From: Endotrypanum monterogeii
Lineage: Eukaryota > Euglenozoa > Kinetoplastea > Trypanosomatida > Trypanosomatidae
Length of the DNA stretch: 64,000 bases
Assembly (NCBI GenBank): GCA_000333855.2
Contig: CM007320.1
Span: forward strand, 1,601,162 to 1,665,161
Direction: 5' to 3'
In this document: positions 22,665-50,902 of the stretch, piece by piece
How positions within the stretch are numbered: the first letter of the stretch is position 1
Layout: every line of letters starts with the position of its first letter
The notes under the pieces: model-generated
The model's database searches: none
Told to the model about the DNA's origin: nothing
Seen by the model: the letters and a program-made list of their open reading frames with translations, nothing else
Made by a program: the position numbers and the translations under genes

Positions 22665-22853
22665 ACCATTTAATCCTTTTTCAAAACAAGCACATCACGG
22701 ACCCATGTCTCCTTGCCATGCGAATTCGCAAGGGAAAAGGACAGCTGAAAAAAAAATCCTAACCCCCAGCGGCCCCCTCCACCTCCCCGCCACCGCCCCC
22801 AACGCATGGGCGCATGACCACCACCATCCCCCACCCACGCCGCCAAAAAAAAA
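22665..22853. other. Spacer ending in the tRNA Pol III terminator
   Basis: Short C-rich non-coding stretch. An A9 run at about 22845-22853 on + reads as T9 on the - strand directly after the tRNA 3' end, a standard RNA polymerase III stop. Confidence 0.75.
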
Positions 22854-22925
22854 CACTCCTACCTGGACTCGAACCAGGGTTATCGGATTCAGAGTCCGAG
22901 GTGATAACCGCTACACTATAGGAGC
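22854..22925 (-). tRNA. tRNA-Gln (anticodon CTG)
   Basis: Read on the - strand, all four arms fold. The seven-pair acceptor stem is 22919-22925 with 22855-22861 (G-U at the outermost pair). The T arm has five pairs around a 7-nt loop (CCTGG stem at 22862-22866 with 22874-22878 on +). The anticodon stem TCGGA/TCCGA encloses loop CTCTGAA, giving anticodon CTG (reads CAG, Gln). A short D arm starts at the GTG/CAC pairs. The internal A and B box sequences are intact, there is no intron, and a T-run terminator follows. CCA is not encoded, as expected for a eukaryote. The gene is antisense to the protein genes on both sides. Confidence 0.95.
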
Positions 22926-23863
22926 GCGTACATCCTTCATATTTATATTGTTTCTGAAACCCTTTTCTCGGCATAACCGCGCCGGCCTCGGGGCCCTTGG
23001 CTCCTGCCGGGGGGGCATGGGCATGGGTCGGGCTGCTCACGGGGGGGGCCTTTCTACGAGCAATAGGGGCGCTGTAGAACGGAGTGCTGGTGTTCGCGTA
23101 GTGGTCTCGCACTTGTGTGGTACACCATGCAATTCGGCCATATCGCGGCCGGGGTGTGGAATGAGAGGTGCTCCGACCAAATTCAACGACCGAGGAAAAG
23201 AGATCGTGCGATAAAGTTCTAAGCGAACGCTATCTTCTGTTGATTATCATCGCGGAGAAGTGAAATCGCGAAAAACACTTTCTATTTGTTTACCCCAGAA
23301 ATCCTGCTTTACTCCAAAAAAAAAAAATATCCTGTTTTCAGCACATACCCGAGCAACACAAGAATACAACAACGCCGTGGTCGCCAATAGTACCGCGGGG
23401 CGCTTTACTGGGAAAGTGCACATACAGTTCTTCGTCACAAATCAATCTTCTCCTGCTTCGGATAGGAACAGTTTCAACAAGAACGTAACAAAAACGGATG
23501 AGTTCGATGTATGAACAAATTAGATGGATAATAAATTAACGAAAAAAACGTTTTCTAAGAAACGTCTTTTTCTTCAACTCAGCGATCCCGTAAGCTGATA
23601 AGTATCATGACAAAACTGGAGACACTGCACTGCACTACATCACCAAAGAACATTAGCCTTCTGAAAATGCTGCACTTGCCTACGCTCACTCGGCATACTT
23701 GTAACTCATTTACTCTCTTTTCTTCCTCTCTCATAGCTCTCCTAGTTTTTCAGCCAGATCATTCGCTAGACCACCGACAACCGCACAGCTCATCTCTTCT
23801 CTGACTTCGCACCTCCTCGAAGCTTTTTACATCCTCACCGAAAAAATTAAAAAACAAGCGGAA
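22926..23863. other. Spacer with a GC-rich block divergent from the tRNA
   Basis: No protein gene seen. Roughly 22976-23215 is clearly more GC-rich than its surroundings, with G-runs at about 23009-23015 and 23041-23048 and several short self-complementary segments (for example CCGGC near 22981 with GCCGG near 23006). It lies 50-290 bp upstream of the tRNA 5' end and would be transcribed divergently from it. Further right, a pyrimidine tract at about 23709-23734 precedes AG at 23735-23736, the probable spliced-leader acceptor for the LRR gene. Confidence 0.5.
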
Positions 23864-30035: not shown

Positions 30036-30765
30036 AAAATGTCAGGGAGGCAAAGCGAATACAAGAAAAAAAAATTAAACCATTCCAGCACCAAAGCCTA
30101 TGGCTCGCCATTTTGATGACTTCCGTACATATAAAATGTGCACCTACGTCTCGTGCGCGAGACAAAACAACAACAACAACAAAAAAGCACTGCGGTATCG
30201 CCGATCAAAAGATGCTCAGCAACACCGCCAACTTCCTAGTGGCCAAGGATAGCGAATTCACTCTTGTTTTTTTTTTCAAAATAGGGGCCAGTAAATAAGA
30301 GACACAGTCGTAGGAGGGTCAACAGATCTTTTCCCCCCTTTCTTTCTGATGCCCTCGCTTCCTCATCACAGACTAATTCTTGGTGGGTGGCTTCGTTTAA
30401 TGAAAAAGAGATTTCAAGAGGCGTCACCCCCCTTCGCATCCTGTCATCTGTTTTTGCACTTTTGTCCTCTTCTTCACGGATCCTCTCTCTATCACTCATT
30501 TTCTTTATTTTTGCTTTCCCCCACTCCCGTCACACCGTATGCACCCCGCTTTCCACATGAATGAACGCAAACACGCGGTTTGGCTTTGTTCGTCTTTTTC
30601 TTCTTTCTAGTTCTCTATATAATTTCTTCACGCGTGCAGGAAATACGTCCCCACACACAGACTCCTCCGTGTGTGCCTTCTTTAAGAGTACCCGGTCTTC
30701 TGTGTGTTGAACTTCTCGAGCGCTCGATCTCTAGTAGATACAGCAGTACCGTTCTTCCCACAAAA

Positions 30766-30853
<88 letters not shown>

Positions 30854-31132
30854 TGACACGAACGGGGGGAGCAGAGAAGAATACAAGTTACATCCCGAAC
30901 GTGTGTTTATTCGCTTCTTCCCATCACCGCTACTAACGAGCTCCGTCCCCACCTCTCTTCATTGCTTTCCTGAAAGCTTTGCTCACACCTTGGAGGTTCC
31001 TCACATACACTCTCCATGAAATGAATGCCTGCATACTCGTACCGAGGAATGATATCTGGGCATCACCATTGCACCACCAGCCACACCTCTCTCCCTCAGA
31101 TTCGTTGGCGACTTTCTCATCGCCCCTGTCCC
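30036..31132. other. Convergent (tail-to-tail) strand-switch region
   Basis: Genes to the left are all on + and genes to the right all on -, so two polycistronic units end here. No coding sequence is supported. It contains (CAA)n at about 30167-30181, T-rich tracts near 30267-30278, and the CA/TA/GA compound microsatellite listed separately. In Leishmania such regions are known sites of Pol II termination and base J; neither can be seen from sequence. Confidence 0.85.
30767..30853. repeat. Compound microsatellite (CA)n-(TA)n-(GA)n in the strand-switch region
   Basis: Alternating CA at about 30767-30795 runs directly into TA at 30796-30838 and then GA at 30839-30853, 87 bp of uninterrupted dinucleotide repeat. 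It is the longest such tract in the window, roughly level with the 63382-63460 array. Confidence 0.97.
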
Positions 31133-38691: not shown

Positions 38692-39419
38692 TGCTGAAGA
38701 AAAACCAAGAGCGGTGAACGACCGCCAGCGAACAAGCGCAAGCACACGTCACTTGCCGACCTTGTCCTCCTTTGCAGCCTCCTTGCGTGCAGCACGGGCA
38801 GAGCGCACACCGAAGAAGCGCACGGCAGAGTGGTTCTTCTTGAGGAAGGCATACACGTTCTTCGTCTTCTCCTCGGCAGACACAGCGCGCGAGGCCTCCG
38901 TAGACGGGAACACCACAGCACCGACAGCGGCATCGCCGAAGCGAGAGCGGTCCTGGGTGGCCGCCTTCACCTCCTCCTCCGACGCCTCGCCCTTCTGCAC
39001 CTTATTGTGGTTCACCGGGAACAGCACAAGCTTGCTCATGTAGGTCTTCAGGCGCTGCACGTTCACGTTCATGCCCTCCTCGGACTTGTTCTTTCGGCGG
39101 CTGTCCACGCGGATTCCGATCGTGGCGGCGTACCGGGGGCTAAGACCAGCAGCCTTCAACTCAGCCGGAGAGAAGCCACGGCCCAGGCGACGCTTCATGT
39201 TGTGACGCACCGTGGGGCAGTTCACCTGAGGGCGCAGCGCCTTCAACGGGCGAGGGAACACCTTCTTGGCCTTCACCAAGCGCAGACGGCGACGGCGGTT
39301 CTTCTGAGCCGGCTGGTTCAGGAAAACCTTCACGTTACCCTTCTGCGAAGAGCACGGGTTCCAGTGCTTCTTCTGGTGAACATGGGGGATCGCGTTGTTA
39401 CCCTTCGGCATCTTCTCTA
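38692..39419 (-). repeat. Direct repeat unit, copy 1 (eL13 gene plus short flanks)
   Basis: 728 bp that recur at 40516-41243 (offset 1824). The only difference I found is at 38743 (C) versus 40567 (T), just past the stop codon. Similarity ends abruptly 57 bp beyond the stop and 8 bp before the ATG. Confidence 0.92.
38749..39411 (-). CDS. RPL13: 60S ribosomal protein eL13, copy 1
   Basis: 220 residues, ATG at 39411. It is an assembled component of the large ribosomal subunit. It starts 'MPKGNNAIPHVHQKKHWNPC', then the basic 'QKNRRRRLRLVKAKKVFPRP', 'LRPQVNCPTVRHNMKRRLGR', 'GFSPAELKAAGLSPRYAATI' and 'GIRVDSRRKNKSEEGMNVNV', which is the eL13 core in its trypanosomatid form. The C-terminus ('KNVYAFLKKNHSAVRFFGVR' and a Lys/Ala tail) is trypanosomatid-specific. 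Length fits the family. Tandem copies of ribosomal protein genes are normal in these parasites as a way to raise mRNA level without promoter control. The protein is identical to that of copy 2; the 3' flanks diverge beyond 57 bp, so the two mRNAs would differ mainly in their UTRs. Confidence 0.96.
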   Translation of the reverse strand: MPKGNNAIPHVHQKKHWNPCSSQKGNVKVFLNQPAQKNRRRRLRLVKAKKVFPRPLKALRPQVNCPTVRHNMKRRLGRGFSPAELKAAGLSPRYAATIGIRVDSRRKNKSEEGMNVNVQRLKTYMSKLVLFPVNHNKVQKGEASEEEVKAATQDRSRFGDAAVGAVVFPSTEASRAVSAEEKTKNVYAFLKKNHSAVRFFGVRSARAARKEAAKEDKVGK

Positions 39420-40515: not shown

Positions 40516-41243
40516 TGCTGAAGAAAAACCAAGAGCGGTGAACGACCGCCAGCGAACAAGCGCAAGTACACGTCACTTGCCGACCTTGTCCTCCTTTGCA
40601 GCCTCCTTGCGTGCAGCACGGGCAGAGCGCACACCGAAGAAGCGCACGGCAGAGTGGTTCTTCTTGAGGAAGGCATACACGTTCTTCGTCTTCTCCTCGG
40701 CAGACACAGCGCGCGAGGCCTCCGTAGACGGGAACACCACAGCACCGACAGCGGCATCGCCGAAGCGAGAGCGGTCCTGGGTGGCCGCCTTCACCTCCTC
40801 CTCCGACGCCTCGCCCTTCTGCACCTTATTGTGGTTCACCGGGAACAGCACAAGCTTGCTCATGTAGGTCTTCAGGCGCTGCACGTTCACGTTCATGCCC
40901 TCCTCGGACTTGTTCTTTCGGCGGCTGTCCACGCGGATTCCGATCGTGGCGGCGTACCGGGGGCTAAGACCAGCAGCCTTCAACTCAGCCGGAGAGAAGC
41001 CACGGCCCAGGCGACGCTTCATGTTGTGACGCACCGTGGGGCAGTTCACCTGAGGGCGCAGCGCCTTCAACGGGCGAGGGAACACCTTCTTGGCCTTCAC
41101 CAAGCGCAGACGGCGACGGCGGTTCTTCTGAGCCGGCTGGTTCAGGAAAACCTTCACGTTACCCTTCTGCGAAGAGCACGGGTTCCAGTGCTTCTTCTGG
41201 TGAACATGGGGGATCGCGTTGTTACCCTTCGGCATCTTCTCTA
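40516..41243 (-). repeat. Direct repeat unit, copy 2 (eL13 gene plus short flanks)
   Basis: 728 bp matching 38692-39419 with one difference seen (T at 40567). Confidence 0.92.
40573..41235 (-). CDS. RPL13: 60S ribosomal protein eL13, copy 2
   Basis: 220 residues, ATG at 41235. The protein is residue-for-residue identical to copy 1 (38749-39411), and the coding DNA shows no difference that I could find. It is upstream of copy 1 in the transcription direction. Its own 5' flank (sequence right of 41243) is unrelated to that of copy 1, so each copy must use a different spliced-leader acceptor. Perfect identity of coding sequence next to unrelated flanks points to recent duplication or ongoing gene conversion. 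Confidence 0.96.
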   Translation of the reverse strand: MPKGNNAIPHVHQKKHWNPCSSQKGNVKVFLNQPAQKNRRRRLRLVKAKKVFPRPLKALRPQVNCPTVRHNMKRRLGRGFSPAELKAAGLSPRYAATIGIRVDSRRKNKSEEGMNVNVQRLKTYMSKLVLFPVNHNKVQKGEASEEEVKAATQDRSRFGDAAVGAVVFPSTEASRAVSAEEKTKNVYAFLKKNHSAVRFFGVRSARAARKEAAKEDKVGK

Positions 41244-41388: not shown

Positions 41389-42734
41389 TGGAACAGAGTA
41401 ACGTTTTGTGAAAGATGTGCGGGGATGTGGCACAACAGAGGGAACAGTGAGTGGTGAAAAAAAAAAAACGCATTCAAACGAGTGTTGAAAGAGTGGGAAG
41501 CAAAGGTGAAGTGAGAAAAAAGCGCAGAAGAGGTATAAACATATCGAATCAAAACGGAGGCAGGCGAGAAGCAACACCTCTCCTCCCACCCGTCCGCCCC
41601 CCCCCCCACACACACAAACAAACAAACGCGCACGCGCGCACATCCAAAGAAGAACTTTGCAGGAGATCGAGCATATCAGCCGAAAATCAAGCGTAGCCAC
41701 GGAAGGGTGGAATGAATGTGTGCCAGGAAAAAGCGCTTGAGTCCAGCCAATATCGTTTCTTTGCTGCCTGGAAAGTGGCAACTCGAGACACTTCAAATCT
41801 CTCTGTCCCAGTGCATCAGCTGATGGGGTAGTGTGACTTTACCTGTATGAAGGCGTTGCGCCTCCCTCCGCGCCAACCCTTCGCATGATGAGACTGTTCT
41901 TTATTTGGTCCTGCGGCTCAAAGTGCCCCAGCACTTATAGGCTTTATGCGATTGTAAATACACAGATCATAGAAACGTGTGACATTCAGGGCAAAATCAT
42001 GCGCTTCATAACTGTGCCAGAGCCCTCGCTGCCCTCAAAACTTTCTCTCTCGGACCCCCATGCATCTGCAGACAGTAGTAGTTCATAAGACAAAAAAAAA
42101 AGGGCTGCGTGTGGAGGACACTTAACTGAAACCATGAAGAAAAGGTTGGGAAGCCCAAGGCAAAATCATCATAACGCCACAGCTCAGCAACAGTCGTGGT
42201 AGAAACGATGATACAAGCTGCAGGGTTGGAATAAGGAAAAAAATGGGGGGGGTAAATATGAGAAGAAAGACCACAAGAAGCGCATACGAGTGGAAGGAAG
42301 AAGAAGCACCGGAGGGACAATCTGATTTTTTTGTGGAAACGGGAACCCCAAACAAAAAAAAAGGGGGAGATCCCAAAACAAAAAAAAAATGAGATCAAGT
42401 ATTTTTCGCGACACGCTCCACCACCGGATAAGCAAGTTCTGAACGTCGACTAAGGCATTTGATGAAAAAAAAAAGACATCCATCGCCGAAAAACGGGGAT
42501 GATGTGGAGAATATGGATCAGAAGATCCCCCACCCGTGCAGTTCACTGTGCAATGCCAGTTGCCCTGTTGAGTACAGAGCAACTATGCTATGGATGGAGA
42601 GCGAGTCAAAGCACAACGGCACCGGCCAACGCCACGACGACTGAAGTCAACGACAGCGCGAAGGCAACAGCACCGACTTCTAGTACACCTTTCGAGTTTT
42701 TTTTCTGAAAACACTGTGATCCACCACTTGGGTC
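41244..42734. other. Gene-free spacer with a GT microsatellite
   Basis: No supported gene. (GT)n at 41351-41386, an A-run at about 41457-41468, a C-run followed by CA repeats at about 41598-41620, and several A-runs between 42090 and 42400 that read as T-tracts on the - strand. Confidence 0.55.
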
Positions 42735-43635
42735 CGACCGTCTCAGTACTACGGCTAGCAAGTGGATCAGGATACGCACACACAGCCACACCTCGACCCT
42801 CCTCTGTTGCACCACGGAGACAGCCGTGGTCATCCGAGAAGAGCGCCTTTTGCCAGCCAGTCCGCACGTGCGTCTAGCGCGTCGCTCGCGTCATTCCTTG
42901 CTCCTGTCTCCGCGCACACGGTCCCTGTTGGGTCTCAGGCTTAAGTAGACTGCGTGCCTGCGGGCGAGCGCCTTGTGGGCACAGAATGCTGCCCCACAGT
43001 GGGAGCGGCGGTAGCCGCTGATCAGGTGATAAGGGATGACCTGTATGTGCTCCAGGGGAGCAGCTGGCGAGCCTCGGGCCAGGTCCCACTCACGCCCAGA
43101 ACCTCTGCCTTGGGGCCACACATCTCCCTCCCCCCCTCTCACCTGAAGTCGCCGCGTGCCACCAGCTGGTGTGGAAACTCGTGTCTCCACAGGGTGTCAC
43201 GGCGTAGCTCTGGGGTACACTCGCCATGTTCCCCCCACCTGGGCTCTGCCAGTCCCCCGCCTCACACCTGCATATGAGAGGCGTCACATACTCCAAACAC
43301 ACGTACAGCCCCACGCAGGTGCTGTGTGGCCGGGTGCCCCGCCCGAGCTCCCTCATAACTCCGTTACTCTTCGAGCCTTGCCCCACCTTTCGCTGAGGAG
43401 CGCTCGTCTCGAATGGGATACACAACCGCTCATGAATGTCAGCAGTGCGCCGGCACCTTGACTGACTTGCTTTGGCACGCCGGCGCTTGCTCGATGAGGG
43501 GGGGGGGCAGTTTCACGAGACGGGTTGCAGCCGATGCGCAGGCGCGTGCCCACGCTGTGCGTGTGTGCATGTGCCTCCTTATCCCATGAGTCAAGTTGTG
43601 TTTTAGTTGAGCCTTTTCTTCACTGGGCGTCGTTG
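42735..43635 (+). repeat. Inverted-repeat arm, left (IR-L)
   Basis: 901 bp that are the reverse complement of 46166-47067. Pairing positions sum to 89802 from 42735 up to the G-run at 43498-43507 and to 89801 beyond it, because the left arm has 10 G and the right arm 11 C there. One substitution was seen: C at 43261 against A (expected G) at 46541. Edges are sharp on both sides. The arm is GC-richer than its surroundings and encodes nothing recognisable. Frames of about 100 codons in it are probably by-products of GC content. Confidence 0.95.
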
Positions 43636-44610
43636 TCGTCTCAGATGGTTCACCGTCTGTGTCGTGGAGCTACACCGGCAACGTACATGAAAAAGTATCG
43701 GGAGAACAGTACCGCATTGGTATTGATCCGCCAGAACCTTCCGTGAATACGGCGACCAGGTAAACGTGTCGTATCCGCATCTACACTGGTACGTCTTCGA
43801 GGGGGCTATTGGTGCCTCGAGAGAACAAGAAAACGCGTCCGGTGATGATCGGGAACCGAACCCCAAAACACGTACCGCTTTCTCTGCGGGAAGAAAAAGG
43901 AAGCGCGAGTAACCTTTTTTTTTTGAAGAAGGTAAAATCATGCCGTATCAAAAGCATGCATGTATTTTATTCTTGATGTGGATGGTACTATAGCATGACA
44001 TGTGGTGAGCTGTGAACGTGGAGCTATCCTGCGAAACCCGCTGAGAGTATTGAGGAGAACAAAGCGTGGAGTGACCTCAAAAAAAAAAAAAGATGCAGTG
44101 ATATGTCTGCAATAGGTGGTGTGAAGAAAAATATATAACGCCTCCATATAGTTGTGGACACAACACGCACACACACACACGCACACAAGCTTTCTACTCT
44201 CAGGCTATCCACCCCGGCGAGTCGGTCCCGAAAAAAAAAAAACAGGGCAGGCACCCATTTTGTGCCGGGTGATACGGGCTTTACCCGCCGCCTCGCAAAA
44301 CCGATATGCTTGATATTGAATGTGAGACGCCTGCCTGAAAAACAAAAAGTCTTTGTTGGTGTATCTTTTCGTGTGTTTCGCGGCCACGCGAAACGTGGAC
44401 GTGTTGTCTCGAACTGGTGATGGCCTCTGGAAGCCCTAGAGAAACAACTCAAGAAGGGGGAAAGAAGAAAAACGATCCGCTTCACGCGGTCAGGGGAGGT
44501 CTCTTATCCAGTCACAGCGCCGGGGCCGTGCACGCACACGGCAACCGGACTTACTCCCCCGCCCCTATCCCTCTCTTATATGGCTACTGGTCTCCCCTCA
44601 TCACTGTGCC
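43636..44610. other. Loop segment downstream of HSP20
   Basis: No supported gene. T-run at 43916-43924, A-run at 44079-44091, (CA)n near 44163-44187, A-run at 44231-44242. Probably holds the HSP20 3'UTR on the - strand. Confidence 0.5.
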
Positions 44611-45078
44611 TCAGTTGATAGGTATGGAGCTGGACGTACGAGAATCGGGGTTGCGTAACTTGGGAATTATCACGTTCAGCTGATTTTCGGTGTAAGTGGC
44701 CTTGACATCGTTGGTGTCAATAGAGGTGGGTAGTTCAAAGCAGCGCTCGAAGTGACCGGCACCACGCTCAGCAACGAGCATGTGTACGTCCACCTGCTGC
44801 TTGAGGTGTTTGCGGTTACCAGACATACAGATCACCCTCGCACTCTCTGTGTAAACGCGTACGTCTTCCTTCTTTACCTGGGGCAAGTCAGCAACGAGGG
44901 TGTAGCTGTCGTCCTGCTCCGATATGTCAACGGCTGGGATCCACGACCCACGAGAGCGAGAGGAGAAGAAAGAGCTAAGCATTTGACTAGGGTATAGACC
45001 AGTGAAGGGGAAAAAAAGTGGGAACAACGCCTCGTCGTTGATGTCGTTCACGTCTTTTTTTTTGAGAGGGTTCCACAT
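44611..45078 (-). CDS. HSP20: Small heat-shock protein HSP20 (alpha-crystallin domain)
   Basis: 155 residues from the ATG at 45078 ('MWNPLKKKDVNDINDEALFP'); the frame extends seven codons upstream only to a TTG. The alpha-crystallin domain covers about residues 45-145: 'WIPAVDISEQDDSYTLVADL' followed by 'PQVKKEDVRVYTESARVICM' is the typical start, and 'HFERCFELPTSIDTNDVKAT' with 'YTENQLNVIIPKLR' the typical end (the A-x-x-x-N-G-V-L motif reads 'ATYTENQLNV'). It has a short N-terminal arm with 'FPFTGLYPSQMLSSFFSSRS', and a tail with 'SIPIN' as I-x-I-like motif. Small HSPs are ATP-independent holdase chaperones forming oligomers. A pyrimidine tract (45093-45115 on -) with AG at 45090-45091 could place the spliced leader only 11 nt before the ATG. 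The gene lies in the loop between two 0.9-kb inverted repeats. Confidence 0.88.
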   Translation of the reverse strand: MWNPLKKKDVNDINDEALFPLFFPFTGLYPSQMLSSFFSSRSRGSWIPAVDISEQDDSYTLVADLPQVKKEDVRVYTESARVICMSGNRKHLKQQVDVHMLVAERGAGHFERCFELPTSIDTNDVKATYTENQLNVIIPKLRNPDSRTSSSIPIN

Positions 45079-46165
45079 TTGTAATTGCCCTGAAAACAAA
45101 ACAAAAAAAGGAGGTAGTGAAGAATACTTAAATAGATATATGTGTGTGTGTGTGTGTGTACGCCTGTATATATTTCTTTGTCGTTGACAACGGAAAGTTT
45201 GATCGACTTAGGTGGGTAGGTTAAAATCCTGGTTGAACAAAACGACATGGACACGAAAAAAAAGTGAGTAGAGGTGTGTGACACAAAATGAAGGAGAGGC
45301 GAGTGGAAGCGAGCGAGATCATGGAAAAAATTCCGAAATTCTTGGAAGAACGAAGCTGCAAGCATCCAAGTCAAGGGAGGGAAACCCCCGCTGAGAGCGC
45401 CTGAGCGACTTCTGCAACCTGGAATCACGTTGATCATAGAGGTCGCACTTGTGTCCCCGCGAGGACGACAAAAGAAAGTGGATACCTTTCACGCTCACTG
45501 AAGCCGGACCACCACTGCCAAGGTTCCTGCTGGGATACCATGCAAACCCATCTGCTTCGCCCTACCCTACTCCTCTCCCCCCTCCCCTCAACCTCCCTAC
45601 CTCTTGACGTTTCGAGAAAACCTGAGGAGGGGGGGGGAACCACTGTGCGAGCGGCAGAAGTGCAGAAGACCAAAAACCGGTTAGCATACTCCTACCGGCC
45701 AAGAGCATCTATCGATTGGATACTGTTGGGTACTGGAATAAAACACGTCAACTTCCAGAAGAAAAAAAAAACAACACCGAAAGGACAGGGAAGGTGCATA
45801 CGGAAAAAAAAAAACAAATTAGGTGCATCCCCATATAACGAGATCAAACTGACTTTGACCCCTGAACAGCAACTCACACACAGAGAGAGATTGACCAAGA
45901 CACTACATGAGCTGTTCACGTTTATCGCGAAAATGACCGCCCGCCTACGTATGCGCATGTACACAAGTGTAGGCGAGAGGTTGTAACATTTTTTTTTTTG
46001 AGCTGAAAACACTGTCTAGAGACATTGAGCTTTTTTTTTGAATATCCTACTTTCTGGATCCGACATACGTATACGTTAGCATAAACATAGCAACATTTCT
46101 TTCTTTAGAGTGCTGGAGAACCTAAGCACAGCAGATCAACAAAAGAAAAATCAAACGAAGCTCAG
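45079..46165. other. Loop segment upstream of HSP20
   Basis: No supported gene. (GT)n at about 45140-45159, A-runs at about 45767-45776 and 45806-45815, a G-run at 45629-45638, and T-runs at 45990-46000 and 46031-46039. Confidence 0.5.
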
Positions 46166-47067
46166 CAACGACGCCCAGTGAAGAAAAGGCTCAACTAAAA
46201 CACAACTTGACTCATGGGATAAGGAGGCACATGCACACACGCACAGCGTGGGCACGCGCCTGCGCATCGGCTGCAACCCGTCTCGTGAAACTGCCCCCCC
46301 CCCCTCATCGAGCAAGCGCCGGCGTGCCAAAGCAAGTCAGTCAAGGTGCCGGCGCACTGCTGACATTCATGAGCGGTTGTGTATCCCATTCGAGACGAGC
46401 GCTCCTCAGCGAAAGGTGGGGCAAGGCTCGAAGAGTAACGGAGTTATGAGGGAGCTCGGGCGGGGCACCCGGCCACACAGCACCTGCGTGGGGCTGTACG
46501 TGTGTTTGGAGTATGTGACGCCTCTCATATGCAGGTGTGAAGCGGGGGACTGGCAGAGCCCAGGTGGGGGGAACATGGCGAGTGTACCCCAGAGCTACGC
46601 CGTGACACCCTGTGGAGACACGAGTTTCCACACCAGCTGGTGGCACGCGGCGACTTCAGGTGAGAGGGGGGGAGGGAGATGTGTGGCCCCAAGGCAGAGG
46701 TTCTGGGCGTGAGTGGGACCTGGCCCGAGGCTCGCCAGCTGCTCCCCTGGAGCACATACAGGTCATCCCTTATCACCTGATCAGCGGCTACCGCCGCTCC
46801 CACTGTGGGGCAGCATTCTGTGCCCACAAGGCGCTCGCCCGCAGGCACGCAGTCTACTTAAGCCTGAGACCCAACAGGGACCGTGTGCGCGGAGACAGGA
46901 GCAAGGAATGACGCGAGCGACGCGCTAGACGCACGTGCGGACTGGCTGGCAAAAGGCGCTCTTCTCGGATGACCACGGCTGTCTCCGTGGTGCAACAGAG
47001 GAGGGTCGAGGTGTGGCTGTGTGTGCGTATCCTGATCCACTTGCTAGCCGTAGTACTGAGACGGTCG
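46166..47067 (-). repeat. Inverted-repeat arm, right (IR-R)
   Basis: 902 bp, the reverse complement of 42735-43635; see the left arm for the pairing rule and differences. Wording such as 'CACCCGGCCACACAGCACC' (46472-46490) and the general GC-rich, frame-free character recall degenerate SIDER-type retroposons of Leishmania intergenic regions; this resemblance is from memory and was not tested. Confidence 0.95.
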
Positions 47068-48730
47068 AGGGCCATGAAAGAACAGAGCCCATCCGCTTCG
47101 CCTACTGATTTTTTCTCCTGCTGCACTTATCTCCTCTCCATGTCAAACCTCTAAATATCCCCCCCCCTCCCCACCAACTTTTGTCACGTATAAAGACTAG
47201 GTGGATAGAGGTGCGTATTGACACATCGAGCGACTGGACGTGAGCAGGTTGACGGCACATATCCTACGAGCAAAAAAAATGTTTTTGGAAAAACAGGAAA
47301 AAAAAAGTAAACCATTTCTGAAAAACCAACAGAACATAAGAAAACAGCAGCAGAGGTTAAAAAACTCAGCACATCGATTTTACAGTGGAGGTGTTTTGAA
47401 AAACAACACAGTGTGGGTCTGAGTGAGCATTTTCTTTCTGGTGGGAACGACTACGTACACACACACACACACACACACACAATCATGTAGAAGAAAAAAC
47501 ACACGTAGCTACATACACACAGCTAGAAACCGGGAGTCAACAAAAGGGAATTTCGCAGCGTGAGCTCGAAGGAAACAAAAACAATTCCGAAACATGAAAG
47601 CGCACGCCAACGCGCCTCCTGCTTTTCTGGTTTACCTGGCCCTCGGTTACCGGAAAAATATATTTGAAAATTCAGAAATTGTTGGAGGTTGAAGGGGAAA
47701 AAAAAAAAGATGAGGAGTTTCGGTTTCACTTCAAACCAAGGCATATGAGGACATCAACCCTTGATCAAAACACACAGAAAAAAAAACGACCATGTGAGAA
47801 AAGCAGCAGAAGCGGGGTAGAGGAAGAAACACCAGTTAAGCGATGAAAGCAAAAAAAAAAAAAGTGAGCTACAGAAGAAGAATGAGCACAGTAGGAGCAT
47901 AACAAAGCAAGCAGAAGGCAGTTACCCGATGCGAGAGCCAATTGAGGAGGGAAAGGATGACAACAGGGGTGTAAGCAATCGAGAAAGATCTACATTCACC
48001 TATTGATGACACCCAGACCCTAGCGAAACATGAACCTAAAAGAAGAAAAAGTAGAAGGGCTGAAAAAAAAAAAAACATGGAAACCTGCTGCGCACACGGA
48101 ACAGAAGAGAGGGGAAAAGAAGTGTTCGAGAGTCGAAAGGGTAGTAAAAAAGAGCACTTCAAAAAAAAAAAAGCGTACAGGGCGAGATGTCGGACGTATT
48201 GCGTGTGTGTATGTGTACGCGCGTTCCCTGGCGTGAGTGGGGATACAGGGGGGGGGTAAAGATGAGAACCTCTGGGTGGAAAAATCGTGAATCAGACAGG
48301 TAGATTCATCTTCTTTTTTCTTACAGGGGAAAACCGCTCGCCAAGTTGAATATCGAGACGAAGTGAGGGATTTTAATATTGTTCAACAACAAAAAAAAGT
48401 TTCTCACAAGATCACTCGGCAGATGGTACTTCGCTTGATATTTTAGTCCCCCCCCCCCTCATTTGCCCCTAGCCCTATCCCTCCCTCTCCACTCCCCCCC
48501 CCCCACGTCGGCACACGGCCTCGAGCTCATCTCTCTCGCTTTACCCGGAGCCTTTTCTGCGGCTCTCAGAGAAACCCAATGTGTTTTCTCTGCACAGCGT
48601 TTTGCATTCGATATCAGCACCTACCCACCCCTCTTATTCTCCTCTCCAGTGCCCTCTCATTGTTCTCTACGCCTCCACACGCCTTCAAAAGGAGGCCGCA
48701 CACCGAATCACATCCGATAGTACATCTTTT
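47068..48730. other. Gene-free spacer, A-rich on +
   Basis: No supported gene. C-run at about 47160-47168, (CA)n at 47456-47480, A-runs at about 47699-47708, 47850-47862, 48064-48075 and 48163-48172, G-run near 48250-48256, C-runs at about 48449-48458 and 48495-48504. Confidence 0.55.
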
Positions 48731-50902
48731 TCACTGTGTCTCCTGTGCCTCTTCGGTCTTCCGCCTCCAGTACTCCTTATTGTCAATACAAAGGTTTACG
48801 GCGAACGTCATAGACGGTAGCAGAGCAGATATAGCCTCCACCATCGGCTGCACAACATACACCATGAAGGATACCTGGCCCTTGGGGAACTCCTCCACCT
48901 CTTTTACCCGATCCATAAAAGGTGAGATGGACAGATTCAGCCTCCGCTCAGCGTCACCCTGTAGGTAAAACTCCCTTGAGATATTCTTGGCCCACTCGGC
49001 GTAGATGTGGTTTGGCCGTGCACAGTTGGAAATATCCGCCATTTTAATAGACATGGAAAGTGCGAGCCGCACGTCTTCCTTTTTTGAGTGCCAATCGCTC
49101 GTCTCCGACATGCGCACTTGAAAATTCTTGAAGATGCGCGCGTGGTTACCCATGTCTGTCGCGAGCACCATCTCCAGCATTGTCTCCCGTACAAGTTGTC
49201 GCTGTTCGCAGGACAACGTCGCGAATATATCATACCGCGGGTTGCGCAGCAGCTCAAAGGTGCAGGCGAGGTGATGATTCTCAAGGATCGACTTGTCGTT
49301 GTACAGGGTGGCCAGGTAAGCACCGGTGCGGGAATGAAAGTTATTGTTGAGTCCCGGATGATCAAAGTCATGCACGGCGCCGGCGATGAGGCTCGCCAAA
49401 ATTTCCTCTTTGCTCAAACGGCACTTCTCGCAAAGCCCGGCAACCATCATGATGTAGTAGTTGATCTGCGTCACATCTGCACCGTGCATGGCATTGTGGT
49501 ACGGATTTGGGTGGTAGGCACTCTGTACAGCTATGAGGAACCGCCGCAGCACGGCGTCGTCTATGTTGAAAAAGCGAACCAAGTCGAGCTTGTAGAGCAG
49601 GAGGTACGTCGTATAGAAGAGGGCATTGCCGTCGGTGATGATCTCGAGTTGGATCGTATCGTAGTCCCATTGATCGATTCCCTTGAAAATCTCAAAAGCC
49701 TCCATGATAAATTGGCCGTTGCCGCTCGCCTCCATCTGCTTTTGAATATCAGGACGCTGCAGTATATTCGAGATGTCCTGCAACTTTACACCCGGACCTA
49801 ATGGGAACACAGAGCGGATGCAAAGCGAAAGCAACTCATCTGGGTCCTCCTCTTGCGGGATATGCTCAGGAGACCATAAGCTATGCTGAAAGCGTTGAGC
49901 ACCCCCCTCATCGTAGAGCTGATCCAGTGGGTGCTTTTGGATGGTGTGCCCCTCACGGGCCTTCAGACGCCGTTCCAGGTTGCGCACCTCGCGGCCCACC
50001 ACCGTAGCGTACTGAGAATGGAGAGCTGACTCCTCACGCAGCGGGAGCACCGTGGGCAGCAGTTGCTCCACGTAGGCAGTATCTCGCTTTATTTCAGCGG
50101 TGTGGACCGCCAACTCGCATTCTAACTTAGCTGACCTTTTTTTTCGTTCGGTCGACTTGCCGCGGGTGCGATTGTGCTGCAGCGCGCGTGCCATCGGATA
50201 CGTCACAAACCGGTAGACCTCCTGTGCGTTTGGCGCGGAGCCGTTCGAAACCATTTCCATCGGAACCATGAACGGGTATGTCTGAGAAGGCTCCTTCGAG
50301 TTCGAGATGGTGAAACTCAGTGCTTTTCGGGTCGGGGTGAGAGAGCTAACCGCCGCGGTGGACTTGATGAGGGCAGTTGCGATGGATTTGAAAAAAGGGG
50401 CCCATGAGAAACCCACGCCGGATTGGCGCTTCGCCTCGCCCAACTCCTCATCCGTGTAGGTGCTGGCGTACACAGACCTGGTACTATTTTCGTAGTAGGA
50501 GAACACCGTGCGCTCCGTACCAGGGTCACAAAAAAGAAAGAGAGTCCCCAATGAGACCGCTTTCGATCGATCGCACATAGCCAAAGCCCCGTACTCTTTG
50601 ATGTATTTGTCCTTGCCCAGTAGCCGTGAGGCGCCACTGTGATGGGAAGACTTCAGCTCCTCCATCCGCACTGCAGAGGCGACAGGGGACTCGATCAGTC
50701 TGCGCGGCGCCGGGGCAGCCTGCGATATCAGTAGGGCTGTCTCTGCCGTGGTCGCTTCCGTTAATGCGGCATGGGCGTGGTTGTCAGTGGTAGTGTAGTG
50801 CACTGCCTTTGCATACGTCGGATAGAGATGATTCTGGTCAGGTTTCGCCTGCGCTATCGACGGTAGCGCTACAGTGTGACGCTTCGAACTACCACTACCC
50901 AT
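48731..50902 (-). CDS. Class I cyclic-nucleotide phosphodiesterase with a putative N-myristoylation site
   Basis: 723 residues from the ATG at 50902; the frame runs nine codons further to a GTG. The catalytic domain occupies about residues 400-715. It has the catalytic 'YHNAMHGADV' (H469, metal ligand H473), the signature 'HDFDHPGLNNNFH' (ligands H511 and D512), 'MADISNCARP' (ligand D623) and the invariant purine-binding Gln in 'GQVSF' (Q676). All the metal ligands are present, so the enzyme should hydrolyse cAMP to AMP. The N-terminus 'MGSGSSKRHTVAL' fits the myristoylation pattern (Gly2, Ser6, basic residue 7), so membrane attachment is likely. Residues 50-400 show no GAF or FYVE domain that I recognise, which separates it from PDEB (GAF) and PDEC (FYVE). 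It may be a PDEA- or PDED-type enzyme; the class is not settled. Confidence 0.94.
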   Translation of the reverse strand: MGSGSSKRHTVALPSIAQAKPDQNHLYPTYAKAVHYTTTDNHAHAALTEATTAETALLISQAAPAPRRLIESPVASAVRMEELKSSHHSGASRLLGKDKYIKEYGALAMCDRSKAVSLGTLFLFCDPGTERTVFSYYENSTRSVYASTYTDEELGEAKRQSGVGFSWAPFFKSIATALIKSTAAVSSLTPTRKALSFTISNSKEPSQTYPFMVPMEMVSNGSAPNAQEVYRFVTYPMARALQHNRTRGKSTERKKRSAKLECELAVHTAEIKRDTAYVEQLLPTVLPLREESALHSQYATVVGREVRNLERRLKAREGHTIQKHPLDQLYDEGGAQRFQHSLWSPEHIPQEEDPDELLSLCIRSVFPLGPGVKLQDISNILQRPDIQKQMEASGNGQFIMEAFEIFKGIDQWDYDTIQLEIITDGNALFYTTYLLLYKLDLVRFFNIDDAVLRRFLIAVQSAYHPNPYHNAMHGADVTQINYYIMMVAGLCEKCRLSKEEILASLIAGAVHDFDHPGLNNNFHSRTGAYLATLYNDKSILENHHLACTFELLRNPRYDIFATLSCEQRQLVRETMLEMVLATDMGNHARIFKNFQVRMSETSDWHSKKEDVRLALSMSIKMADISNCARPNHIYAEWAKNISREFYLQGDAERRLNLSISPFMDRVKEVEEFPKGQVSFMVYVVQPMVEAISALLPSMTFAVNLCIDNKEYWRRKTEEAQETQ

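What the first reader, a model, noticed from the sequence alone, without database searches (positions are those of the whole stretch)
42735..47067. HSP20 bracketed by near-identical 0.9-kb inverted repeats
Two arms (42735-43635 and 46166-47067) are reverse complements with a single substitution and one homopolymer length change seen, around a 2530-bp loop whose only recognisable gene is the chaperone HSP20. In Leishmania, inverted repeats of this size are known to recombine into linear or circular extrachromosomal amplicons, so this is a candidate stress-gene amplification unit, or a locus whose loop can flip orientation.
Basis: partly seen in the sequence, partly recalled or inferred. Interest (0 to 1): 0.8.

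Follow-up and report, generated by a model that had tools for sequence, protein, structure and literature searches.

The report
Inverted repeat pair around HSP20
A single-copy small heat-shock gene of a Leishmania-like parasite sits between two almost identical mirror-image copies of a 0.9-kb non-coding sequence; such pairs are an ordinary rearrangement-prone feature of these genomes, and the layout does not suggest a purpose-built way of amplifying this gene.

Summary
In detail: arms 42735-43635 and 46166-47067 are reverse complements over 901/902 bp with one substitution and one poly-G length change, around a 2530-bp loop whose only recognised gene is HSP20. The arms appear non-coding, G+C-rich, with sharp ends and no target-site duplication; a seeded search finds them only here in 30.7 Mb. 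About 230 bp of each arm resembles a degenerate element elsewhere on the chromosome (60% identity; 0 of 200 shuffles as good). By two proteins the genome lies nearest Porcisia hertigi, not clearly in Leishmania. The pair fits the two-member, chromosome-specific repeat groups of Leishmania, which can anneal and recombine. 'Stress-gene amplification unit' is weak: in published models inverted repeats amplify outward to a telomere, here 1.64 or 2.08 Mb away; no direct repeats found in 264 kb flank HSP20; HSP20 is single copy. A reversible loop flip and gene conversion between arms are likelier consequences; neither can be shown without reads. New member of a known kind.

The parts
42735..43635 (+). 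Arm 1 (901 bp), apparently non-coding, 62% G+C, between HSP20 and a tandem pair of ribosomal-protein genes
   Evidence: G+C 62% against 48% in the loop, 44% and 48% in the outer flanks and 52% in the window
46166..47067 (-). Arm 2 (902 bp), reverse complement of arm 1, between the phosphodiesterase gene and HSP20
   Evidence: one substitution and one poly-G indel against arm 1
43636..46165 (.). Loop, 2530 bp, single copy in the assembly
   Evidence: 1 match in 30.7 Mb
44611..45078 (-). HSP20 / alpha-crystallin small heat-shock protein, 155 aa, single copy
43041..43272 (+). Core of arm 1 (arm positions 307-538) that resembles a degenerate element at C36:1720757-1720988 (60% over 240 bp) and its 96% copy at C36:1771693-1772025; mirrored in arm 2
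48731..50902 (-). Cyclic-nucleotide phosphodiesterase (723 aa), upstream neighbour of HSP20 in the same direction; successive locus numbers in P. hertigi (JKF63_00430/00431) and L. enriettii (CUR178_04303/04302)
40573..41235 (-). Gene recognised by me (recalled name) as ribosomal protein L13, the copy nearer arm 1
   Evidence: the name comes from no call

Best explanation
The feature is a chromosome-specific, two-member inverted pair of a non-coding intergenic repeat. It arose by a recent inverted segmental duplication around the resident HSP20 gene, or was recently made uniform by gene conversion between the arms. Each arm carries a degenerate element core, possibly SIDER2-like. It works, if at all, as a DNA recombination and annealing substrate: crossing over between arms would invert the loop reversibly, conversion keeps the arms alike, and rare fold-back annealing could seed a large inverted duplication centred on the loop. 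Shown: anatomy, copy number in the assembly, place on the chromosome, conserved HSP20-PDE neighbourhood. Inferred: every recombination step, and the age. No dedicated role for HSP20 is needed.
For: Arms differ at 2 of 902 columns, with abrupt ends: flanks outside the arms are no more alike than shuffles (outer p 0.40, inner p 0.58, 300 shuffles each). Two matches only in the genome. No stop-free frame longer than 140 codons; no Pfam match over cut-off in pieces of 3 of the 6 frames; no Rfam match at E up to 1 in 42000-48000. The core resembles another element: 0 of 200 shuffles, 0 of 300 for each of two copies. That element has a 96% copy about 51 kb off on the same chromosome, the local-subfamily pattern reported for SIDER2 (PMC2424063). 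Homology limited to segments between subfamilies, and two oversized 1270-bp elements that are SIDER2-like in one half only, are on record there. HSP20 is single copy and co-directional with its neighbours. 242 of 507 L. major repeat groups have two members and groups are usually on one chromosome (PMC4028189 section 7).
Against: No reads, no second strain and no related genome could be examined, so neither recombination nor age is shown. This is the only inverted pair in 264 kb by my filter, so it is not commonplace there. The element core is weak evidence of a dispersed family: nhmmer gives it 18.2 bits with a bias of 15.7, a two-sequence profile finds only the two arms and that one place in 264 kb, seeded genome searches add one copy on the same chromosome, and the rest of the arm shows no clear homology to it (152, 19, 74, 24 and 23 of 300 shuffles as good).
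Confidence: 0.62

Rival explanations
1. RNA-level element: the arms lie in the 3' untranslated regions of the phosphodiesterase and HSP20 messages in opposite orientation, act as SIDER2-like stability elements, and make the two messages complementary over 0.9 kb.
For: Both arms lie in one minus-strand gene run, 1.66 kb after the PDE stop and 0.98 kb after the HSP20 stop. A tract-plus-AG acceptor candidate lies 11 nt before the HSP20 start. In L. major 73% of LmSIDERs lie in predicted 3' UTRs, a median 680 bp after the stop (PMC2323293 passages); in L. infantum 87% of SIDER2 (PMC11520807 passages).
Against: No transcript data. The script lists 35 pyrimidine tracts of 10 or more with an AG within 60 nt between PDE stop and L13 start, so UTR limits are unknown. 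Neither arm folds clearly better than shuffles: z 0.42 (13 of 20 as good) and -1.11 (4 of 20). The SIDER 79-nt signature was not tested. RNAi status is unresolved.
Confidence: 0.15
2. Dedicated HSP20 amplification unit formed by the inverted arms.
For: Arm length and spacing resemble inverted pairs used at PTR1 (identical 578-bp arms; a pair 3 kb apart among the most used), where genes through the loop rose in expression (PMC2530873, PMC4256157, passages). Rearrangements at inverted repeats are detectable in unselected L. major.
Against: Mid-chromosome place, 1.64 and 2.08 Mb from the telomeres; HSP20 single copy in the assembly; no direct-repeat row flanks it in 264 kb; the loop gains least in a fold-back product (deduction).
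Confidence: 0.07
3. Invertible on/off switch: arm-to-arm recombination flips HSP20 against its polycistron and silences it.
For: Long, nearly identical arms close together around one small gene. A synteny inversion flanked by SIDERs in L. infantum is on record (PMC2689281 passages).
Against: One orientation seen, in one assembly, and it is the co-directional one. No recombinase was looked for and no second state is shown.
Confidence: 0.06
4. Assembly artefact: one arm is false.
For: Only an assembly was available; reads were not.
Against: The arms differ by a substitution, the loop is single copy, the outer flanks show no repeat in 264 kb, there is no N in the window, and the contig has telomere repeats at both ends.
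Confidence: 0.04

Closest known systems
Repeat Alignment Groups (RAGs) of Leishmania, two-member inverted type (Ubeda et al. 2014, PMC4028189; sections 5, 7, 8 and passages seen)
   Same: Non-coding, 0.2-2.5 kb, over 85% identity, two members, one chromosome, inverted
   Different: Another Leishmaniinae lineage; far from the telomeres, whereas inverted pairs are said to lie generally nearer them; rearrangement not shown here
Inverted repeats near PTR1 on chromosome 23 (PMC2530873, PMC4256157; passages seen)
   Same: Near-identical intergenic inverted arms a few kb apart around a few genes
   Different: The PTR1 product runs to the telomere and was found in drug-selected lines; here the nearest telomere is 1.64 Mb away and no product is known
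SIDER2 degenerate retroposons (PMC2424063, abstract and section 5; PMC2323293, passages)
   Same: G+C-rich, intergenic, local subfamilies of high identity, homology between subfamilies limited to segments
   Different: Arms are 0.9 kb rather than about 0.55 kb (1270-bp exceptions exist); signature not tested; only a 230-bp core resembles another copy

Membership tests
Two-member RAG (Ubeda 2014) | Non-coding repeat of 0.2-2.5 kb | tested here: met
   901/902 bp; longest stop-free frame 140 codons; no Pfam match over cut-off in pieces of 3 of 6 frames
Two-member RAG (Ubeda 2014) | At least 85% identity | tested here: met
   99.8%
Two-member RAG (Ubeda 2014) | Members usually on one chromosome | tested here: met
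   2 of 2 matches on C36
Two-member RAG (Ubeda 2014) | Rearrangement junctions detectable by PCR | not testable with these tools
   No DNA or reads
SIDER2 retroposon | About 550 bp, G+C-rich | tested here: inconclusive
   62% G+C against 52% in the window, but the arm is 902 bp; 1270-bp members are on record
SIDER2 retroposon | 79-bp signature | not tested
   The passages and sections seen print no signature letters; they are in figures. 63% of chromosome-32 elements have it
SIDER2 retroposon | Degenerate dispersed family with local subfamilies | tested here: inconclusive
   Core resembles 2 other copies on C36 at about 60%; those two are 96% alike; none found on other contigs by seeded search
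Telomere-directed linear amplicon seed (PTR1 type) | Inverted arms a few kb apart | tested here: met
   2530-bp loop
Telomere-directed linear amplicon seed (PTR1 type) | Place near a telomere (a tendency, not absolute) | tested here: not met
   1.64 and 2.08 Mb away; contig ends carry telomere repeats
Two recent transposon insertions | Target-site duplication at each copy | tested here: not met
   No shared word over 6 bp within 25 bp of the ends; alignments no better than shuffles. SIDER2 elements of L. infantum chromosome 32 also lack clear ones, so this does not exclude a SIDER2 origin

The most novel reading that the evidence does not exclude
The arms make HSP20 an invertible gene: arm-to-arm recombination flips the only small heat-shock gene in and out of its polycistron, giving a mixed population of HSP20-on and HSP20-off cells in a lineage otherwise without control of transcription initiation; or the complementary arms tie phosphodiesterase and HSP20 messages together as duplex RNA.
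Probability: 0.06. Interest if true: 0.75.

Novelty: new member of a known kind. Interest (0 to 1): 0.25.

Why it matters
If the loop flips, this would be a compact natural test of whether inverted repeats change gene expression in trypanosomatids. Otherwise it extends the repeat-driven plasticity described in Leishmania to a neighbouring lineage, and warns that a gene lying inside an inverted repeat is not thereby an amplification unit.

Tried and rejected
Rfam scan of 42000-48000 at E up to 1: nothing. tRNA scan of the window: one tRNA-Gln, none in the arms. Pfam on HSP20 and on pieces of 3 of the 6 arm frames: only a weak VanA_C match below its cut-off, E 0.013, taken as chance. Pattern CCCACTGTGGGGCAGCA with up to 2 mismatches: 9 places, 2 of them the arms; the reversed control gave 3; the other 7 loci showed no match to the arm. 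RNAi as a user of the hairpin: one Piwi-domain gene whose relatives include an L. donovani 'argonaut-like' protein; that L. donovani lacks RNAi, and that trypanosomatids carry a Piwi-type gene separate from AGO1, is recalled. The PAZ search had no ringing control, so it says nothing; RNase III gave 3 matches, 2 marked over the cut-off. Left open. Telomere pattern: 366 places in the genome, only the first 100 listed, none of those on C36; the ends of C36 were read instead.

Paper searches: Leishmania + inverted repeats + HSP20 gave 0 papers; siRNA + inverted repeats + L. braziliensis + Argonaute + trypanosomatid gave 2, of which PMC4338418 was seen in passages on repeats and the other not opened; RNAi + Leishmania + Endotrypanum + Argonaute + lost gave 2, not opened; Porcisia hertigi + chromosome + fusion + Leishmania + synteny gave 0. 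PMC8004069 has no match for SIDER, retroposon, transposable, RNAi, Argonaute or Dicer; its section on repeats gives 45 repeat families over 4.49% of the P. hertigi genome, most without annotation, so this pair may be among described repeats there.
Full report
Observation. The two arms exist exactly where stated. They align over 902 columns with one substitution and one extra G in a poly-G run. The loop is 2530 bp. Searched against the whole assembly (30,695,936 bases, 44 contigs) the arm has 2 matches, both in this window (its middle 301 bases also 2), the loop 1 and the HSP20 protein 1. These searches are seeded, so diverged copies can be missed. In a contiguous 264-kb stretch around the window (10,581 N), blastn of the stretch against itself gave 9 rows of at least 100 bp and 75% identity after a filter on dinucleotide repeats (removed rows not counted): 8 direct and this one inverted pair.

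Where it comes from. HSP20 is 70% identical to Porcisia hertigi, 68% to L. enriettii and 63% to L. major. The phosphodiesterase is 81% identical to P. hertigi, 80% to L. donovani over 89% of the query, and 73-74% to the four other Leishmania proteins named in the list. So this is a Leishmaniinae parasite, nearest Porcisia among the proteins found; the species is not settled. The contig, 3,727,717 bases, carries CCCTAA repeats near its left end and TTAGGG repeats at its right end. The P. hertigi contig that holds both genes is 3,844,477 bases.

Anatomy. Of the ORFs of 150 aa or more kept by a mechanical overlap filter, 12 of 13 before 30.04 kb are on the plus strand and 11 of 11 after 31.13 kb on the minus strand, so HSP20 lies inside one minus-strand gene run, in the same direction as its neighbours. 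HSP20 and the phosphodiesterase bear successive locus numbers in P. hertigi (JKF63_00430/00431) and L. enriettii (CUR178_04303/04302), so their neighbourhood is older than the repeats need be. The arms hold 62% G+C against 48% in the loop and 44% and 48% in the flanks. They do not look coding by frame length (at most 140 codons) or by Pfam on pieces of 3 of the 6 frames, and match no Rfam family.

What the arms are. A sensitive search of the 264 kb finds one further relative at E up to 1, 60% identical over 240 bp, with 55.4 bits against at most 38.6 in 200 dinucleotide shuffles. Against this, nhmmer gives it only 18.2 bits with a bias of 15.7, and a two-sequence profile finds nothing beyond the two arms and that place. 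That relative has a 96% identical copy over 333 bp about 51 kb further on (reciprocal search). Arm positions 301-560 align to each of the two copies better than any of 300 shuffles; the ends of the arm do not (152, 19, 74, 24 and 23 of 300 shuffles as good). So each arm is a larger segment that carries a degenerate element. SIDER2 elements of Leishmania are about 550 bp, G+C-rich and form local subfamilies; between subfamilies only segments are alike, two 1270-bp members are SIDER2-like in one half only, and clear target-site duplications were not found on L. infantum chromosome 32 (PMC2424063: abstract and section 5 read). That fits, but I could not test the 79-bp signature. The ends of the arms are sharp, without target-site duplication or weak similarity beyond them. 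I read this as one inverted segmental duplication, or later uniformity by conversion, rather than two separate insertions.

How it would work. In Leishmania, direct repeats give circles, and inverted repeats anneal and give palindromes extending to the telomere (PMC4028189 sections 5, 7 and 8 read; PMC4256157 and PMC2530873 passages). At PTR1 the inverted pairs used most were 3-10 kb apart, and in unselected L. major 15 of 48 tested chromosome-23 amplicons were detected at inverted repeats, so this pair has a suitable geometry. But in such a product the loop is present once and each flank twice (deduction), and here the flank would be 1.64 or 2.08 Mb. Against this, loop genes rose at PTR1 as well. 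The simplest consequence is reversible inversion of the loop by crossing over between arms. In the flipped state HSP20 would face against its polycistron and probably not be expressed. This is inference; only the co-directional state is in the assembly.

RNA-level rival. Arm 2 lies 1.66 kb after the PDE stop and arm 1 0.98 kb after the HSP20 stop. If both are retained in the messages, the two 3' ends would be complementary over 0.9 kb. Splice-acceptor candidates are many (35 listed), so retention is unknown. Folding of either arm alone is unremarkable (z 0.42 and -1.11, 20 shuffles each).

Comparison with what is known. The pair meets the three sequence criteria of a two-member RAG: non-coding and 0.2-2.5 kb, over 85% identity, one chromosome. 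242 of 507 L. major RAGs have two members. Its mid-chromosome place differs from the stated tendency of inverted pairs to lie nearer telomeres. HSP20 is reported as single copy in each kinetoplastid genome examined except a draft of T. congolense (PMC6197667 passages). Repeats of P. hertigi and its relatives have been catalogued (PMC8004069 section 3.4), in tables that I could not read.

Verdict. A true and tidy feature, a new member of a known kind; the amplification-unit reading is weak, the flip untested. Interest 0.25.

Noticed in passing
38749-39411 and 40573-41235, minus strand: Two genes with the same 220-aa protein (name L13 recalled, from no call) in a 743-bp direct repeat of 99.2% identity, next to arm 1.
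   Followed up: partly
30036-31132: Convergent strand switch between a plus-strand and a minus-strand gene run, with AC/AT microsatellites at about 30.75-30.85 kb.
   Followed up: no
Contig C36 of G000: HSP20 sits on a 3.73-Mb contig with telomere repeats at both ends here and on a 3.84-Mb contig in P. hertigi, against a 1.22-Mb contig in L. major, where it is LmjF.29.2450; this suggests a chromosome fusion in this clade.
   Followed up: partly
C36:1720461-1721261 and C36:1771693-1772025 (L039, L040): A degenerate G+C-rich element with a 96% copy about 51 kb away in the same orientation; off-register matches between the copies hint at internal repeats.
   Followed up: partly
L034 (C21:121231-122160): A single Piwi-domain gene whose relatives include L. 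donovani and L. braziliensis 'argonaut-like' proteins; no second match to PF02171 in the genome.
   Followed up: partly
22853-22926, minus strand: tRNA-Gln (ctg) predicted in the plus-strand gene run.
   Followed up: no
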